This document shows, piece by piece, positions 23,178 to 38,501 of a DNA stretch of 38,501 nt. A model generated the notes under the pieces. That model searched no databases, was not told the DNA's origin, and saw only the letters and a program-made list of their open reading frames with translations. A program made the position numbers and the translations under genes. Source of the DNA: a virus; the IMG/VR virus record IMGVR_UViG_3300036944_000889, positions 1 to 38,501 of that record; one strand, written 5' to 3'. Positions within the stretch are counted from its first letter, which is position 1. Every line of letters begins with the position of its first letter.

Positions 23178-23552
23178 ATGGCCGCCCCAAATATTATTAA
23201 CATCGCGAACGTTACAGCTAAGACAACAACTGTTGTAATTGCTAACACGACAGGTTCATTCTCAGTTCTATCTAATGCTTCGGCTTCAGGTCAGGCATAT
23301 AAGGTGAATACTCTTCTTATCACTAACTATGCAGCAGTAGCAGCTAACGTTGCTCTGAATTATTATTCAGCTGCAGCTCTAGGTGGAACAGCTACTCCTT
23401 TAGCTAACAACATCACGATCCCAGTCGGGTCTACTCTGGTTCTACTAGATAAAGCTTCATCTATCTACTTAGAAGAAGATAAGTCTATCGGAGCTACAGG
23501 AACAGTCGGCAATACTCTATCAGTTATCGTGAGCTACGAGATCTTAGCCTAA
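23178..23552 (+). CDS. Small virion structural protein
   Basis: A 124-residue protein of beta-rich, hydrophobic/small-residue character: VTAKTTTVVIANTTGSF, KVNTLLITNYAAVAANVALN, then NITIPVGSTLVLLDKASSIY. This pattern recurs in short virion proteins coded beside tail fibres in marine myoviruses, and resembles a small beta-sandwich that decorates or caps another protein. GGAGG at 23168-23172 is a strong ribosome binding site one base after the fibre stop region. The stop shares one base with the next start. Function not established. Confidence 0.6.
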   Translation: MAAPNIINIANVTAKTTTVVIANTTGSFSVLSNASASGQAYKVNTLLITNYAAVAANVALNYYSAAALGGTATPLANNITIPVGSTLVLLDKASSIYLEEDKSIGATGTVGNTLSVIVSYEILA

Positions 23553-24865
23553 TGCCTAGAAGATGGTCTGGTAGTAGAATTTCTGCTAATAGTGCGAAAG
23601 CATTTTCTCAGTCGGACTTTTCAGTAAATCCGAGCCCAGGTGTATGGTCGCTTCAACAACTATCTGCATATAGAGCAGTTAATATGTGGCCATCATCAAA
23701 AACGAAATATGTTCTATATTCTTGGGGTGGTGATAAGTATAACATTCTAGGAAATACTACAAACAATGATAATCCACTTGCAACATCTATTCAGAATTAT
23801 ATTCCAGCAGTTGTAACTCATGAACCCGCTGCTTGGTCAGCATTTAGTTCTGGAACTCATGCGCTTGCAGTTAAAACTGATGGTACTCTCTGGTCATGGG
23901 GTAGAAATAATTATGGCCAGCTCGGAACTTCTACAAAAACTACTTATGGAAGTAGTGGTTACCCGTCATATTTACTAACATACACATCTAATCTGAATAT
24001 GTCTAGTCCAACTCAAGTTGGTGCGCTATCTACGTGGGCTTCTGTTTCAGCTGGTTATTTAAGCTCCGCAGCAGTTAAAACTGATGGAACTCTATGGACT
24101 TGGGGGCTTGGTACATTTGGTAGATTAGGCTTAGGAAATACTGCAACATATTCTTCACCAAAACAAGTCGGTGCTCTTACTAATTGGTCTAAAGTTTCTA
24201 TGGGAGACGGCGTGTGTGGAGCAATTAAAACTGATGGAACTCTATGGACTTGGGGCTCTGGTTCGCAAGGAGCTCTTGGTAGCGGAGCTACAGCCGATAG
24301 ATCATCTCCGGTTCAAGTTGGAGCTCTTACTACTTGGGCTACAATTGTTATGGCTGCATCTAAACTTGATGGTAGAAACTTTGCTTTAGCCACAAAAACT
24401 GATGGTACTCTCTGGTCATGGGGGTCAGGCGGAAACGGAGTTCTAGGATTAGGAAATACTACTTCGTATTCATCGCCAAAACAAGTCGGTGCTCTAACTA
24501 CATGGAGGTCAGTAGCCTGTACTTCTTCTCCTCAATCTAGATCCGTTATTGCAGTTAAAACAGATGGCACTCTCTGGTCTTGGGGTTATAATTCTGTTGG
24601 ACAACTTGGGCTTAATAATTTGACTGCGTATTCTTCACCAAAGCAAGTTGGAGCTCTAACTACCTGGTCAAAAGCCTCTATCACAAGAGGGCATGCTTTA
24701 GCCACAAAAACTGATGGCACTCTTTGGGCTTGGGGAGCTGGAACTAACGGTAAACTTGGATTAGATAATACTACTACGTATTCATCTCCAAAACAAGTTG
24801 GAACTTCTACCGCTTGGACGATTCCAGTAGCTTCTGTATCTGCATCTTTCGCGTTGAAAGGATAA
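23552..24865 (+). CDS. RCC1-like seven-module beta-propeller protein (copy 1)
   Basis: A 437-residue protein. After a 50-residue N-terminal segment ending in PSPGVWSLQQLSAYRAVN-like sequence, it carries seven WG modules. Six have the form A-x-KTDGTLW(S/T/A)WG, then GQLGLGNTT-like sequence, then SSPKQVGALTTW; the first is a divergent half (YSWGGDKYNILG). Seven such blades are what a closed RCC1-type beta-propeller needs. In eukaryotes RCC1 is a nucleotide-exchange factor; only the fold is suggested here. Lying among tail-fibre genes, the likeliest role is a surface adhesin or fibre tip, which is inference. Confidence 0.75.
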   Translation: MPRRWSGSRISANSAKAFSQSDFSVNPSPGVWSLQQLSAYRAVNMWPSSKTKYVLYSWGGDKYNILGNTTNNDNPLATSIQNYIPAVVTHEPAAWSAFSSGTHALAVKTDGTLWSWGRNNYGQLGTSTKTTYGSSGYPSYLLTYTSNLNMSSPTQVGALSTWASVSAGYLSSAAVKTDGTLWTWGLGTFGRLGLGNTATYSSPKQVGALTNWSKVSMGDGVCGAIKTDGTLWTWGSGSQGALGSGATADRSSPVQVGALTTWATIVMAASKLDGRNFALATKTDGTLWSWGSGGNGVLGLGNTTSYSSPKQVGALTTWRSVACTSSPQSRSVIAVKTDGTLWSWGYNSVGQLGLNNLTAYSSPKQVGALTTWSKASITRGHALATKTDGTLWAWGAGTNGKLGLDNTTTYSSPKQVGTSTAWTIPVASVSASFALKG

Positions 24866-24871
24866 TTTCAT

Positions 24872-26230
24872 ATGCAATGGAAAGGTTCTCGCGGTTCTTT
24901 CAATTCCCCAGTTCAACTGGGGAAAGGACCAAATTTAGATAATATCATCCCGTCACCGGGCGTGTTTAATGCCGATTCTATTTTTACTGGAAAGAACAGT
25001 ACTAAATGGCCAACAGTTACTCATTCTAGAGCAACTGGTGGGCAGCTTTGGGCTATGGGTATAGAATATGATAATGGCGGAAACAGATATTTTGCTTGTG
25101 GGTCTACAGCTTTAACTACAGTTGGAATTAGTTCTCCCGTTCAAATTGGAGCATATACTAACTGGGCTCAGATCTCCGCGTCACATTATCATGGAGTTAA
25201 TATTAAAACTGATGGCACTCTCTGGACTTCCGGCGTAAACTTTCATGGAATATTAGGTAAAACTACGGGGGCTACTACATCACTGAGCACCGCTGGAAAA
25301 TCTTCTTTGGCTCAAATTGGAGCTCTTACCAACTGGAAATTATCTGACTGTAATCAGTGGATGTCGGCAGCAGTTAAAACTGATGGAACTCTATGGGTCT
25401 GGGGCCAAAACTCCTCAGGTCAACTTGGTCTAGGTAATACCACATCATATTCATCACCAAAGCAAGTTGGAGCACTCACCAATTGGGCTTCTGTAAGTTT
25501 AGCTAAAAACACTGACCTCGCTTCTTCGAATCAAATAAGTGCTTTTGCAATAAAAACTGATGGCACTCTCTGGGCCTGGGGTCAAAACGGCGGAGGCCAA
25601 CTTGGTCTGGGTAATACTACTTCGTATTCATCACCAAAGCAAGTTGGAGCACTCACCAATTGGGCTTCTGTTTTCAATATAACTGCATCATCGGGGTCAA
25701 GTGCATCAAAAACTTTTGCATTAAAAACTGATGGAACTCTTTGGGCCTGGGGGAAAAATATTCATTATGGAGCTCCATTCAGTGTTAGTTCTCCTGTACA
25801 AATAGGAAAAGCAACTTGGAAAACTATAATTCCTGCTGGTAAACCTGGAGGTAGTACAGCTGGAGTTCACACTCTGATAGGAATCAAAACTGATGGCACT
25901 CTCTGGACTCTAGCTATCGGAAGTAATAATACTTTTTCTAATTTAATCACTGGAAAAAATACTACAGTCTATCAATTTTGCCAAATTGGAACTGATTCGA
26001 CTTGGAAAACAGTGTCGGCAAGTGGCATACGATCAGGCAGCCCTGATGGATCTCCGTTTGTTGCTGCAACTAAAACTAATGGCACTCTCTGGACTTGGGG
26101 TAGTGGAACTGGTGGTAAACTTGGTCTCGGCAGTACAACCTCATTCTCATCGCCTAAGCAAGTTGGAGCTCTTACTGTTTGGCAAGATGCTATCGCGATT
26201 AGAAAAAGAACAATGGCTCTGAGATCATAA
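24872..26230 (+). CDS. RCC1-like seven-module beta-propeller protein (copy 2)
   Basis: A 452-residue paralogue of the preceding protein, starting 6 bases after its stop with AAGGA at about 24858-24862. It shares the N-terminal pattern (WKGSRGSFNS, then PSPGVFNADSIF and a later KWP) and again shows seven modules. Three are canonical (WVWGQNSSGQLG, WAWGQNGGGQLG, WTWGSGTGGKLG) and four are degenerate (LWAMG, LWTSG, WAWGKNIHYG, LWTLAIG). The greater decay of this copy suggests divergence towards a different target. Each gene has its own start and a full set of blades, so this is not a frameshifted single gene. Role inferred as adhesin or fibre-associated. Confidence 0.75.
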   Translation: MQWKGSRGSFNSPVQLGKGPNLDNIIPSPGVFNADSIFTGKNSTKWPTVTHSRATGGQLWAMGIEYDNGGNRYFACGSTALTTVGISSPVQIGAYTNWAQISASHYHGVNIKTDGTLWTSGVNFHGILGKTTGATTSLSTAGKSSLAQIGALTNWKLSDCNQWMSAAVKTDGTLWVWGQNSSGQLGLGNTTSYSSPKQVGALTNWASVSLAKNTDLASSNQISAFAIKTDGTLWAWGQNGGGQLGLGNTTSYSSPKQVGALTNWASVFNITASSGSSASKTFALKTDGTLWAWGKNIHYGAPFSVSSPVQIGKATWKTIIPAGKPGGSTAGVHTLIGIKTDGTLWTLAIGSNNTFSNLITGKNTTVYQFCQIGTDSTWKTVSASGIRSGSPDGSPFVAATKTNGTLWTWGSGTGGKLGLGSTTSFSSPKQVGALTVWQDAIAIRKRTMALRS

Positions 26231-26236
26231 TAAATA
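26229..26236 (+). promoter_or_regulatory. Near-consensus late promoter (AATAAATA)
   Basis: AATAAATA matches the late box at 7 of 8 positions. It overlaps the stop codon of RCC1-like copy 2 and lies 33 bases before the sulfotransferase fusion gene. Confidence 0.4.
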
Positions 26237-26269
26237 GTCCATAGCATAGTTTAATGTGGAGTATTTACA

Positions 26270-28021
26270 ATGAAAAAACTATATTTTCTAGCCGGACTTC
26301 CTAGGTCTGGATCGACAGTTCTAGCCGCAATTCTAAATCAGAGACCAGATATGTACGTATCACCTACGTCTGGTCTATCTGATATGATTGGTCAGGCTAT
26401 TTCTGTCTGGGAAAATAACCCAACATATAAAGTTCAAGACAGAGATGAATCTGAAATTCTTCAGATCGCGATGGGAATCGCTCAGGGAAATTATTCTACT
26501 ATCGATAAGCCGATCATCGTCGACAAATCTAGATCTTGGCCAGCGCCACAGATCATGGAAACCATGTCTAAAGTCATGGGAGAAGCTCCTAAGATTATTG
26601 CCACAGTTCGGAATGTACCAGACTGCGCAGCATCTTTTGTTAGAATTGCTAAGCCAGAAAATCTTGATAAATTCTTACTCGAAGGGGGTCTGATCGAACA
26701 CCTCAAGACTTCATATCTGACTCTAGAAGCTGGATATGCTGAAGCCCCAGAAAACTTCTGTATCATTGATTATGATGATCTGATGGATGATCCCAAATCA
26801 CAGTTGAATAAAATTGAACAATTCTTAGAGCTAGAACCATTCGAATATGATATTACAAACATCGAAAGTTCAGCAGTAAAAGAAAAAGACGAAGAAGTCT
26901 GGAATATTCCTGATCTGCATAAGGTAGCACCAAAGCTAGAACGTCAACATTCACAGTCTGCTCTAGATGTTTTGGGACCTCGATATGCAGACTTCATGCA
27001 AGCTAGATTCTGGTTAGGCGAAACTCCAGAAGACAGAGAACTCACTCTTCTAGATAAACAACTAGAAGCATCTAAGGTTGGTGACTTCGAGCTTGGTTGG
27101 GAGTTAGCTCAGCAGCTAGAAAAAGAAGAACCTCTGAATAATCGTGCTGCATACAATCGTGGTTGGTATCTTCTGAATCAGGGAAGACTATCTAAGGGGC
27201 ATCGTCTTCTAGATAAAGGCAGACTAGAAAACGTATTCGGAAACAGAGTACCGAATACTCCTCAACCGATGTGGACAGGAACAGAAAGAGGAACCATTCT
27301 TCTGAATCTCGAAGGTGGTTTGGGAGATCAGATCTGGGGAGTCAGATTTGCTAAAAATATCTCCGCTCTGGGAAACAAAACAATCGTAGCCTGTTCGGGT
27401 GAACTCATTCCAACTCTGAAAGATTGTCCCGGAGTCACTGCTATCATCGATCATTCTGCAGTCGGTGGAGTATATCACGACTACTGGGTTCCTTCGATGT
27501 CCGCTATTCTACCTCTAGGATTAGAATACAAAGATATTTCCGGTAAGCCTTATATTGGCAAGCACCACAAATACTCTAATCCAAAGCGTCTACGAGTCGG
27601 AGTCAGATGGCAGGGCAATCCCAGATTCGAGCACGAACAACATAGAGTCTTTCCACCTGAACTCTTGTTCAACGTTCTAGAAAATTATGATATTGATGTT
27701 GTATCTCTACAAAGAGACGAAGGTGCTCAGCACACTCCTAGCTGGATGCTGACTCCAAATCTTGATACATGGGAAGACACTAGAATAGCAATTTCGGAAT
27801 GTGATTTGGTTATTTCGTCATGTACCTCGGTAGCACATCTATCAGCAGCTATGGGAAAGAAGACGTGGATTATTTCACCGATTCTTCCATATTTCCTCTG
27901 GGCTCCTCCAGGAGAAAAGACTTGCTGGTATAATACTGCTACTATATTCAAGCAAACTAAGCCAAACGAATGGGAAGAAACATTCGACATTATAAATAAT
28001 AGACTAAGAGGAGAAGTTTAA
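26270..28021 (+). CDS. Sulfotransferase-TPR-glycosyltransferase fusion enzyme
   Basis: A 583-residue protein with three parts. Residues 1-250 are a sulfotransferase: the 5'-phosphosulfate loop FLAGLPRSGSTVLAAILNQ (about 6-24), DKSRSWP (85-91), the 3'-phosphate motif VRNVPDCAASFVRI (113-126) and YDDLMDDP (168-175). Residues about 265-320 look like TPR helices (GDFELGWELAQQLEKEEP, YNRGWYLLNQGRL). Residues about 340-580 resemble the GT9-like domain of TPR glycosyltransferases: GGLGDQIWGVRFAK (349-362), GVRWQGNP (444-451), and DLVISSCTSVAHLSAAMGK (512-530). It would use PAPS and a nucleotide sugar. No signal peptide, so it acts in the cytoplasm. Position among fibre genes suggests it modifies fibres; altering host surface sugars is an alternative. 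Confidence 0.8.
   Translation: MKKLYFLAGLPRSGSTVLAAILNQRPDMYVSPTSGLSDMIGQAISVWENNPTYKVQDRDESEILQIAMGIAQGNYSTIDKPIIVDKSRSWPAPQIMETMSKVMGEAPKIIATVRNVPDCAASFVRIAKPENLDKFLLEGGLIEHLKTSYLTLEAGYAEAPENFCIIDYDDLMDDPKSQLNKIEQFLELEPFEYDITNIESSAVKEKDEEVWNIPDLHKVAPKLERQHSQSALDVLGPRYADFMQARFWLGETPEDRELTLLDKQLEASKVGDFELGWELAQQLEKEEPLNNRAAYNRGWYLLNQGRLSKGHRLLDKGRLENVFGNRVPNTPQPMWTGTERGTILLNLEGGLGDQIWGVRFAKNISALGNKTIVACSGELIPTLKDCPGVTAIIDHSAVGGVYHDYWVPSMSAILPLGLEYKDISGKPYIGKHHKYSNPKRLRVGVRWQGNPRFEHEQHRVFPPELLFNVLENYDIDVVSLQRDEGAQHTPSWMLTPNLDTWEDTRIAISECDLVISSCTSVAHLSAAMGKKTWIISPILPYFLWAPPGEKTCWYNTATIFKQTKPNEWEETFDIINNRLRGEV
27991..27998 (+). promoter_or_regulatory. T4-type late promoter box TATAAATA
   Basis: An exact TATAAATA lies in the 3' end of the fusion-enzyme gene, 22 bases before the next start, which also has AGGAG at 28009-28013. 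Confidence 0.5.
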
Positions 28022-36152: not shown

Positions 36153-36986
36153 ATGTTAGGACGTACTTGGTACTTTGGCTCTATTAGAAAATACGTAACG
36201 ATCTTCGGATCGCTCTTTAACGATATTTCTATCAATAGAGTCGACTCAGACGACAAGACTGTTAAGACTATCAAGGTTCCTATTTCTTACGGACCAAAGG
36301 AACGTTATCTAACTCGCGAAGAACAGAACCCAGATCTGCTTCGTCCCATTTCTATGGTTTATCCACGAATGGCTTTTGAGATCACCTCGGTTACATACGA
36401 TTCATCTAGAAAACTGAATCCAATTGGAAAGTGCACAAGCGGATCTAGTTCAGCTGGAACTCTCAAGACTCAATATAATCCAGCTCCATACAACATCGGA
36501 TTTTCTTTATCTATAATTGCCAGAAATTCTGATGATGCTCTGAGAATCGTAGAACAGATTCTCCCATTCTTCAATCCATATATCAATGTTACAGCAAATC
36601 TTATTCCTGAGATGAATTATGATCCAGTAACAATTCCAATTTCTCTCGAGGCAGTTCAACAGGGCGAGGCTTATACTGGTTCTTTTGAGAGTCAAGAATT
36701 CGTGATCTGGAATCTCTACTTCAATCTCAAGGGTTATATCTACGGACCCATTCAAGACTCGAAGGTTATCAAAGAAATCTTTGTTAACTTCTATACTCCT
36801 TCTGGAGATCTTAACGCAGCTAACATGGAAGCCGCTACAATTCAAGAACACATATATATTAGGCCAGGCTTAACATCTAATGGAGAACCAACATCTAATA
36901 CTTCAGATTCGGTAGCCATTAGTCAAATTGATTCTACAGATGCTTATGGCTTTATTATTAATTATGTAAGAGATGCAGATGAATGA
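36153..36986 (+). CDS. 15: Tail sheath stabiliser gp15
   Basis: A 277-residue protein (T4 gp15 is 272). It opens with WYFGSIRKYVTIFGSLFNDI and carries VPISYGPKERYLTREEQNPD, then ISMVYPRMAFEITSVTYDSS, the conserved core of gp15 tail completion proteins. gp15 caps the finished tail and joins it to the neck. The gene ends in a TGA that overlaps the start of gp16. Confidence 0.92.
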   Translation: MLGRTWYFGSIRKYVTIFGSLFNDISINRVDSDDKTVKTIKVPISYGPKERYLTREEQNPDLLRPISMVYPRMAFEITSVTYDSSRKLNPIGKCTSGSSSAGTLKTQYNPAPYNIGFSLSIIARNSDDALRIVEQILPFFNPYINVTANLIPEMNYDPVTIPISLEAVQQGEAYTGSFESQEFVIWNLYFNLKGYIYGPIQDSKVIKEIFVNFYTPSGDLNAANMEAATIQEHIYIRPGLTSNGEPTSNTSDSVAISQIDSTDAYGFIINYVRDADE

Positions 36987-37380
36987 CTCTAACTCAGATC
37001 CAATTGCCAACATTCTGAATATCACTCCCATCGTTAAAGAAGACGGTGTTGTAATTTATCAGGAAGAAACTGAAACCTACACAGAAATTGATTCAGATAT
37101 TGCTTATGCCAGAAGCATGATGTACAATACCATCAAAGACGCAGCAGACGCAGTCGATACGATGTTAGATTTGGCTAAACAGAGTCAACATCCCAGAGCA
37201 TTCGAGGTTGTAGCTACTCTGCTTAATGCTAAGCGTGAAGCAACAAAGGACTTATTAGATCTTCATAAAGTAAAGAAAGATCTAAATAAAGAAGATCCAA
37301 CTGGCCCAGATACAGTAAACAATAATCTGTTCATCGGGTCAACTGCAGATCTATTAAATATGCTTAAAAACAAAGAGTAA
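36979..37380 (+). CDS. 16: Terminase small subunit gp16
   Basis: A 133-residue protein (T4 gp16 is 164). The helical, acidic pattern and ARSMMYNTIKDAADAVDTML, then QHPRAFEVVATLLNAKREAT and KDLLDLHKVKKDL match small terminases of T4-like phages. It recognises DNA for packaging and stimulates the gp17 ATPase. I prefer ATG 36979 because AAGAGA then lies 5 bases upstream; an in-frame ATG at 36973 would add two residues. It overlaps the gp15 stop and lies 6 bases before gp17. Confidence 0.85.
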   Translation: MNDSNSDPIANILNITPIVKEDGVVIYQEETETYTEIDSDIAYARSMMYNTIKDAADAVDTMLDLAKQSQHPRAFEVVATLLNAKREATKDLLDLHKVKKDLNKEDPTGPDTVNNNLFIGSTADLLNMLKNKE

Positions 37381-37386
37381 CACAAT

Positions 37387-38289
37387 ATGGCAGCTAAGCC
37401 TGAAACATATATGGGAAACCGCAATCTTAAGCGGTCTGGAGTAGAACTCGGTTGGGATGCAGAACAACTCAGAGAATATGTCAAGTGCTCTGAAGATCCA
37501 GTTTACTTTATCAAAAATTATATCAAGATTGTAAATATCGATAAGGGTCTAGTTCCGTTTGAGCTCTGGCCTTTCCAGGAAGATATGATCAGAACTGCTA
37601 TGGATAACAGATTTGTTATCGCTAAGATGCCCCGTCAGGTCGGTAAGACTACTACCGTAGCTGCTCTGCTTCTGTGGTATGTTCTATTCAATAGTACATT
37701 CAAGATTGCTATTCTAGCCAACAAGGAAAAACAGTCTAGAGAAATCTTATCCAGAATTCAATTAGCTTTTGAGCATCTGCCAAAGTGGCTACAGCAAGGT
37801 GTTGTGGAATGGAACAAAGGTAATATTGAATTAGAAAATGGTTCAAAGATTCTATCATCATCTACATCTTCTACCGCTATTCGTGGTGATTCGTTTAATC
37901 TGATTTATCTCGACGAGTTCGCGTTCGTTCCGTCTAATCTTCAGGATGAATTCTTCGCCTCGGTATATCCTACTATTTCTTCGGGTGAATCATCTAGAAT
38001 TCTGATCACGTCTACTCCAAACGGAATGAACATGTTCTATAAAATCTGGACAGACTCTGAGCAGGGTAGAAATAGATATAAAAGAGTTTCAGTTCATTGG
38101 TCAGATGTTCCCGGAAGAACTGCTGCTTGGCGAGAAGAAACTATCTCAAACACATCAGAGCGTCAGTTCTCACAAGAGTTTGAATGTGTTGATGGAAAAA
38201 GTATTATTACAATTAAAAATAGAAAAAGCGGCAAAACCGAAGAAATCACACTCGAAGATTTTATAAATAAATTGAGTGTAAATTCTTAG
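37387..38289 (+). CDS. 17: Terminase large subunit gp17, N-terminal half fused to N-intein
   Basis: A 300-residue protein. Residues 1-266 are the T4-type terminase ATPase: WPFQEDMIR, Walker A KMPRQVGKTT (80-89), Walker B LIYLDEFAF (172-180), and the coupling motif TSTPNG (208-213). A full gp17 has about 550-610 residues with a C-terminal nuclease, which is missing here. After QFSQEFE (260-266) the sequence changes to Cys267 and an intein-like segment (CVDGKSIITIKNRKSGKTEE) of 34 residues, ending in TAG at 38287-38289. The nuclease half must come from a second gene beyond the window, joined by protein trans-splicing. No frameshift is visible in the ATPase part. Confidence 0.88.
   Translation: MAAKPETYMGNRNLKRSGVELGWDAEQLREYVKCSEDPVYFIKNYIKIVNIDKGLVPFELWPFQEDMIRTAMDNRFVIAKMPRQVGKTTTVAALLLWYVLFNSTFKIAILANKEKQSREILSRIQLAFEHLPKWLQQGVVEWNKGNIELENGSKILSSSTSSTAIRGDSFNLIYLDEFAFVPSNLQDEFFASVYPTISSGESSRILITSTPNGMNMFYKIWTDSEQGRNRYKRVSVHWSDVPGRTAAWREETISNTSERQFSQEFECVDGKSIITIKNRKSGKTEEITLEDFINKLSVNS
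38185..38286 (+). other. N-terminal half of a split intein (IntN)
   Basis: Codons 267-300 of the terminase gene. It begins with the nucleophile Cys1 in a block-A-like C-x-x-G pattern, followed by alternating beta residues and a Glu/Lys-rich segment ending in LEDFINKLSVNS. At about 34 residues it is far shorter than usual N-inteins (about 100) and stops before block B, as in the atypically split terminase inteins known from metagenomes (AceL-TerL, GOS-TerL). Confidence 0.78.
38262..38269 (+). promoter_or_regulatory. T4-type late promoter box TATAAATA inside N-intein
   Basis: An exact TATAAATA lies within the intein codons, 29 bases before the HNH start. It could give the endonuclease gene its own late transcript. 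Confidence 0.45.
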
Positions 38290-38298
38290 GAAACTGGA

Positions 38299-38501
38299 AT
38301 GAATTATAGAAAAATTTGGGAATCGGTAAATGGTCCTATACCTAGAGATGAATCTGGATTTTCTTACGAAATTCATCATATAGATGGAAATAGAAAAAAT
38401 AATTCTATAGATAATCTGGTATGCCTTTCTATTAAAGATCATCTCCAGCTTCATTTAGACCAGGGAGATTGGGGAGCTGCGGCTCTGATTGCTAGAAGAT
38501 T
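38299..38501 (+). CDS. HNH homing endonuclease between split-intein halves (3' end cut by window)
   Basis: An ORF open from ATG 38299 to the window edge (67 complete codons). It has the HNH_3-type motif YEIHHIDGNRKNNSIDNLVC (residues 24-43) followed by LSIKDHLQLHLDQGDWGAAA, a layout frequent in phage-encoded free-standing homing endonucleases. The double His and the Asn pairs are the expected metal-binding and catalytic positions. AGGA at 38288-38291 is 7 bases upstream. It starts 9 bases after the terminase TAG and is in the same reading frame. It is probably the enzyme that spreads this split-intein cassette into intein-less terminase genes. Confidence 0.85.
   Translation, partial: MNYRKIWESVNGPIPRDESGFSYEIHHIDGNRKNNSIDNLVCLSIKDHLQLHLDQGDWGAAALIARR

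What the first reader, a model, noticed from the sequence alone, without database searches (positions are those of the whole stretch)
38185..38501. Large terminase broken by a split intein with an HNH endonuclease gene between the halves
The terminase ATPase runs intact to QFSQEFE, then changes to a Cys-led intein N-terminus of only 34 residues and stops; an HNH homing endonuclege gene starts 9 bases later. Known fractured genes in phages combine split inteins with a free-standing endonuclease, and terminase is a known site for atypically split inteins with very short N-parts. The break falls between the packaging ATPase and the nuclease, so active packaging motor would need protein trans-splicing.
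Basis: partly seen in the sequence, partly recalled or inferred. Interest (0 to 1): 0.9.

Follow-up and report, generated by a model that had tools for sequence, protein, structure and literature searches.

The report
Split-intein terminase with HNH homing gene
In this uncultured T4-like phage the gene for the DNA-packaging motor is cut in two by a mobile element, a split intein with a DNA-cutting homing gene next to it, so the motor must be rejoined after translation; the arrangement belongs to an already known family (AceL-/GOS-TerL split inteins) that proves widespread and mobile.

Summary
TerL (gp17) ORF 37387-38289 is a normal T4-type packaging ATPase up to Glu266, then carries a 34-residue Cys-led intein N-fragment and a stop. 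An HNH gene starts 9 nt later and runs off the record, so the C-half lies outside the held sequence. Relatives supply the missing part: L174 (HNH domain 82% identical) and over a dozen other distinct contigs show TerL-N+IntN / HNH gene / IntC+TerL-nuclease, the intein ending SHN, mostly before CEF(L/I)GS. Intact TerLs read QEFE|CEFLGSS with nothing inserted. The IntN-family profile matches solved CatN (1.6e-10), an IntC matches CatC (6e-10), and a contiguous relative folds as a HINT domain. So this is a member of the known atypical TerL split-intein family. The window's TerL groups with empty-site relatives while IntN and HNH resemble other carriers, so the element is mobile. Trans-splicing in this phage is inferred, not shown.

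The parts
37387..38184 (+). TerL (gp17) N-terminal extein: packaging ATPase, residues 1-266
   Evidence: PF03237 Terminase_6N 7.7e-26; 88% aa identity to intact TerL of L001
38185..38289 (+). Intein N-fragment, 34 aa, Cys1, with stop TAG
   Evidence: 44-58% identical to IntN of L174/L082; shuffle test 102 vs max 51; IntN profile hits CatN 6dsl_A 1.6e-10
38288..38292 (+). AGGAA, Shine-Dalgarno-like, overlapping the IntN stop, 6 nt before the HNH start
   Evidence: sequence; similar purine-rich stretches before the homing gene in many relatives
38299..38501 (+). HNH homing endonuclease gene, 5' part only (67 aa), cut by the contig end
   Evidence: HNH_3 7.4e-15, PHROG 12324 4.3e-24; 82% identical to the L174 HNH in the same position

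Best explanation
The gene for the large terminase is interrupted at its conserved QEFE|CEFLGSS codons by a mobile element made of an atypically split intein (short IntN, long IntC) plus a separate HNH homing endonuclease gene between the halves. Three proteins are made, probably from one transcript: TerL-ATPase+IntN, the HNH endonuclease, and IntC+TerL-nuclease. IntN and IntC bind, form a HINT domain and splice QEFE to CEFLGSS, restoring full-length TerL. The endonuclease cuts uninterrupted terL alleles of co-infecting phages, and repair copies the whole element in. Shown: the TerL-N/IntN/HNH order in the window and the full order in relatives, family membership, mobility from trees. Inferred: presence of the C-half just beyond the contig end, trans-splicing, cleavage of the empty site.
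For: Full architecture in relatives, L174 closest by HNH (82%). IntC ends SHN, mostly before CEF(L/I)GS. IntN profile and IntC match CatN/CatC. Contiguous homologue L175 modelled at pLDDT 94 matches gp41-1, DnaB, VidaL and Cat inteins. The TerL-N tree puts the window with empty-site L001-L003 (SH-aLRT 96-97) and needs at least 15 gains or losses of the element, while IntN and HNH resemble carriers. HNH motif residues are intact and the HNH has a plausible ribosome site. The homing-gene tail overlaps the IntC start codon in relatives.
Against: The C-half is not in the record. IntN alone (34 aa) has no significant hit in PDB and is recognised only through its family. Codon-position differences in IntN give no clear purifying signal (8/9/11 to 10/9/17); this is a short, loosely conserved segment, so that is weak either way, but it is not positive evidence. 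No splicing or cleavage has been measured.
Confidence: 0.92

Rival explanations
1. A self-splicing group I intron carrying an I-TevIII-like HNH gene interrupts terL, and the 34 residues are read-through into the intron.
For: The HNH domain's relatives in isolated phages include I-TevIII, an intron endonuclease (51% over 78 aa for the L019 homologue); intron-split terL is known in phage ICP1 (PMC10448857).
Against: No Rfam intron in the window, L019, L076 or L015, nor in 37900-38501 at E<=1. The 34 residues are homologous to intein N-termini of other phages, and the downstream halves in relatives begin with an intein C-part that an intron would not need.
Confidence: 0.04
2. TerL works as two separate chains without splicing (genes in pieces, as for the NrdA split by a homing gene), the intein parts being vestigial.
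For: Insertion of a homing gene that leaves a working two-chain ribonucleotide reductase is reported (cited in PMC10448857).
Confidence: 0.02
3. Chimeric assembly, or a dead terL with a functional copy elsewhere.
For: The contig ends inside the element; only about 38.5 kb is held.
Against: Independent contigs from many metagenomes show the same join; the reading frame and the HNH motif are intact.
Confidence: 0.02

Closest known systems
AceL-TerL / GOS-TerL / Cat atypical split inteins
   Same: Phage TerL gene, very short IntN (25-37 aa) and long IntC (104-115 aa), Cys+1 (PMC11766414); sequence match of the family to CatN/CatC
   Different: IntN of 34 aa from a distinct subgroup (CVDGKxxITIKN..); HNH homing gene after IntN. 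I could not read the primary papers to see what lies between the halves in AceL/GOS.
Fractured genes: split inteins with free-standing homing endonucleases (Dassa et al. 2009; from my own knowledge, paper not held)
   Same: Essential phage gene split by a split intein with a homing gene between the halves
   Different: Here the nuclease is HNH_3, in sister loci GIY-YIG with the same C-terminal domain
I-TevIII and related HNH intron endonucleases of T-even phages
   Same: HNH domain, 51% identity over 78 aa for the L019 homologue
   Different: I-TevIII is intron-associated; the match covers only the first 41% of the protein, so the C-terminal domain is not shared at that sensitivity
Campylobacter phage IBB_35 terL
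   Same: terL interrupted by an intein together with an HNH gene (PMC3322345)
   Different: mobE-like HNH, described there as intein plus intron; distant phage group

Membership tests
Atypical TerL split inteins (AceL/GOS/Cat) | Short IntN with Cys1/Ser1 after the TerL ATPase half | tested here: met
   34 aa, Cys1; shuffle test and profile vs CatN 1.6e-10
Atypical TerL split inteins (AceL/GOS/Cat) | IntC of about 104-115 aa ending HN before Cys+1 and the TerL nuclease half | tested here: inconclusive
   Lies beyond the contig end; met in L174, L019, L082 and others with the same order of parts
Atypical TerL split inteins (AceL/GOS/Cat) | Protein trans-splicing | not testable with these tools
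   needs expression of both halves
Fractured genes | Free-standing homing endonuclease gene between the intein halves | tested here: met
   HNH ORF 9 nt after IntN in the window; IntC follows it in relatives, while in the window the far side is beyond the contig end
HNH homing endonuclease | HNH_3 domain with intact motif residues | tested here: met
   7.4e-15; EIHHIDGNRKNN..DHLQLH intact
HNH homing endonuclease | Cleavage of the uninterrupted site and homing | not testable with these tools
   only indirect: patchy presence on the TerL tree
Group I intron | Conserved intron core | tested here: not met
   no Rfam hit; a core beyond 38501 cannot be excluded in the window itself, but none was found in L019, L076 or L015

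The most novel reading that the evidence does not exclude
Probability: 0.75. Interest if true: 0.6.

Novelty: new member of a known kind. Interest (0 to 1): 0.45.

Why it matters
It shows that the TerL split inteins used in protein engineering are a widespread, mobile lineage in T4-like phages, with natural diversity in IntN and IntC (useful for orthogonal protein ligation). It offers an evolutionary series that bears on how split inteins arise and are lost, and a clean case of exchanging a nuclease head on a constant domain at one target.

Tried and rejected
Group I intron: no Rfam match. Second terL, IntC or C-half inside the window: none. Continuation contig by exact 26-base pattern: none. 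Direct PDB search with the lone 34-aa IntN: no hit. Pfam HGTP_anticodon hit to the lone IntN (E 0.0085, below its cut-off): taken as chance. MAFFT of IntN against full inteins misplaced the IntN, so it was left out of the structure job. Codon-position test on IntN: uninformative. Double features listed under cyanophage terL matches (Sf-CH11, S-CAM22, S-CREM1) turned out to be a single terL CDS plus a slightly overlapping upstream ORF. Dassa 2009 and Bachmann and Mootz 2015 are not held.

Full report
Observation. The ORF at 37387-38289 is a T4-type large terminase N-half. It follows the usual neighbours: sheath stabiliser 36153-36986 and a 135-aa ORF at 36973-37380 that sits in the small-terminase position. 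Its ATPase domain matches Terminase_6N. After Glu266 the sequence becomes CVDGKSIITIKNRKSGKTEEITLEDFINKLSVNS and stops. An HNH_3 ORF starts 9 nt later, behind an AGGAA that overlaps the stop, and is cut off by the end of the record at 38501. The record is a 38.5-kb virus contig.

What replaces the normal sequence. In the nearest intact terminases, L001 (88%), L002 (86%) and L003 (81%), the protein continues QEFE|CEFLGSSNTLIDG and on to the nuclease domain. In L001 the Terminase_6N match ends at 277 and Terminase_6C begins at 305, while the break corresponds to residue 260 (L001 numbering, which starts at window residue 7), so it lies at the end of the ATPase domain, before the nuclease. The Cys is native as well as intein Cys1, as expected for an intein inserted before Cys+1.

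The missing half in relatives. Searching IMG/VR with the window's 67-aa HNH gave, as most of its best matches, genes lying between a TerL-N+IntN ORF and an IntC+TerL-C ORF; weaker relatives are free-standing between other phage genes. The closest HNH, L174 (82%), came in through the IntC search. It has TerL-N+IntN 1991-2932, HNH ATG 2945, IntC ATG 3507, and SHN|CEFLGS followed by Terminase_6C. A table of 75 distinct loci with an element at this site lists IntN lengths of mostly 27-47 and IntC mostly of about 107-121 residues. Most end SHN|CEF; a subgroup (L086, L121, L130, L134) has SHN|T.

Family. A profile of nine IntNs against PDB hits CatN 6dsl_A at 1.6e-10; the profile contains other family members, so this tests the family, and the window's place in it rests on the pairwise scores. 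The IntC of L019 hits CatC 6dsl_B at 6e-10, then gp41-1 and NrdJ-1. A naturally contiguous homologue, L175, modelled with pLDDT 94 and pTM 0.85, matches inteins throughout, including VidaL and Cat. The window IntN scores 102 against its best homologue, with 51 the highest of 2000 shuffles. A review gives AceL-TerL 25/104, GOS-TerL 37/115 and Cat 30/104 residues (PMC11766414).

Mobility. On a tree of 110 TerL N-halves the window groups with empty-site L001, L002 and L003 (SH-aLRT 96-97), and presence or absence of the element needs at least 15 changes (quick tree, no bootstrap; the sample was drawn by searches for TerL, HNH and IntC, so frequencies mean nothing). The window's IntN is closest to L082/L084 (58%) and L174 (44%), its HNH to L174 (82%) and L082 (73%), although their TerL is only 62-70% identical to the window's. 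The element therefore appears to have a history separate from its host gene.

Anatomy of the module in relatives. The homing gene's last codons (GKRNVL, stop) overlap the IntC start codon, often by about 8 nt from ATG to the stop, behind GGAAAACG-like sequence within the homing gene. L015 has lost the homing gene but keeps a tail ending LFNIITGKRYVL in front of IntC. L182, L221, L231 and L235 have short spacers and no detectable homing gene; L175 and L206 are single uninterrupted ORFs, i.e. cis mini-inteins. In many other phages the same site carries a GIY-YIG gene. The HNH and GIY-YIG proteins share about 100 C-terminal residues at 40-55% identity (E 1e-25 to 1e-32), whereas their N-terminal heads show nothing above chance. 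That this domain binds DNA is inferred from the usual layout of such enzymes. The direction of the changes (split to cis, or the reverse) was not tested. The window's own C-terminal part is beyond the contig end.

Mechanism. Best reading: trans-splicing restores gp17, and the HNH enzyme drives spread into empty alleles. Splicing, cleavage and the presence of the C-half in this very genome are inferred. Against a group I intron: no Rfam hit and intein homology on both sides.

Novelty. Membership in the atypical TerL split-intein family makes this a new member of a known kind; terL with intein plus HNH was noted in Campylobacter phage IBB_35 (PMC3322345). The head exchange and the series of forms at one site may be undescribed, but the key older papers were not available to me.

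Noticed in passing
L241 and L245 (Campylobacter phage CPX, NC_016562: about 2.7-3.2 kb minus strand and 25271-26599 plus strand): TerL is split at another site, after Walker B (FIDE|CAFI): the N-half ends in a 31-aa IntN (CVAGDTKITVRNKKTGVIEDITMEELYNRIG) and the IntC+C-half lies about 22 kb away on the other strand, so the two halves are not even neighbours. The IntC matches in 43 Campylobacter phage records.
   Followed up: partly
L240 (Vibrio phage VP-1, MH363700, 74807-78149): A cultured phage whose terL carries a contiguous mini-intein inside the Walker A motif (QSGK|C...HN|TT) and, at the same site as the window, IntN fused in frame to a GIY-YIG homing domain with IntC in a separate ORF.
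   Followed up: partly
L242 (Vibrio phage 1.244.A, MG592609) and L192: IntN and GIY-YIG homing domain form one ORF with TerL-N, while IntC+TerL-C is separate.
   Followed up: partly
L086, L121, L130, L134: IntC ends SHN before Thr instead of Cys (SHN|TEFIGSS or SHN|TMFLGSS), so this subgroup would splice with Thr+1.
   Followed up: no
window 23552-24865: ORF matching phage 'regulator of chromosome condensation' (RCC1-like repeat) families, PHROG 7220 at 1e-39, amid tail and baseplate genes.
   Followed up: no
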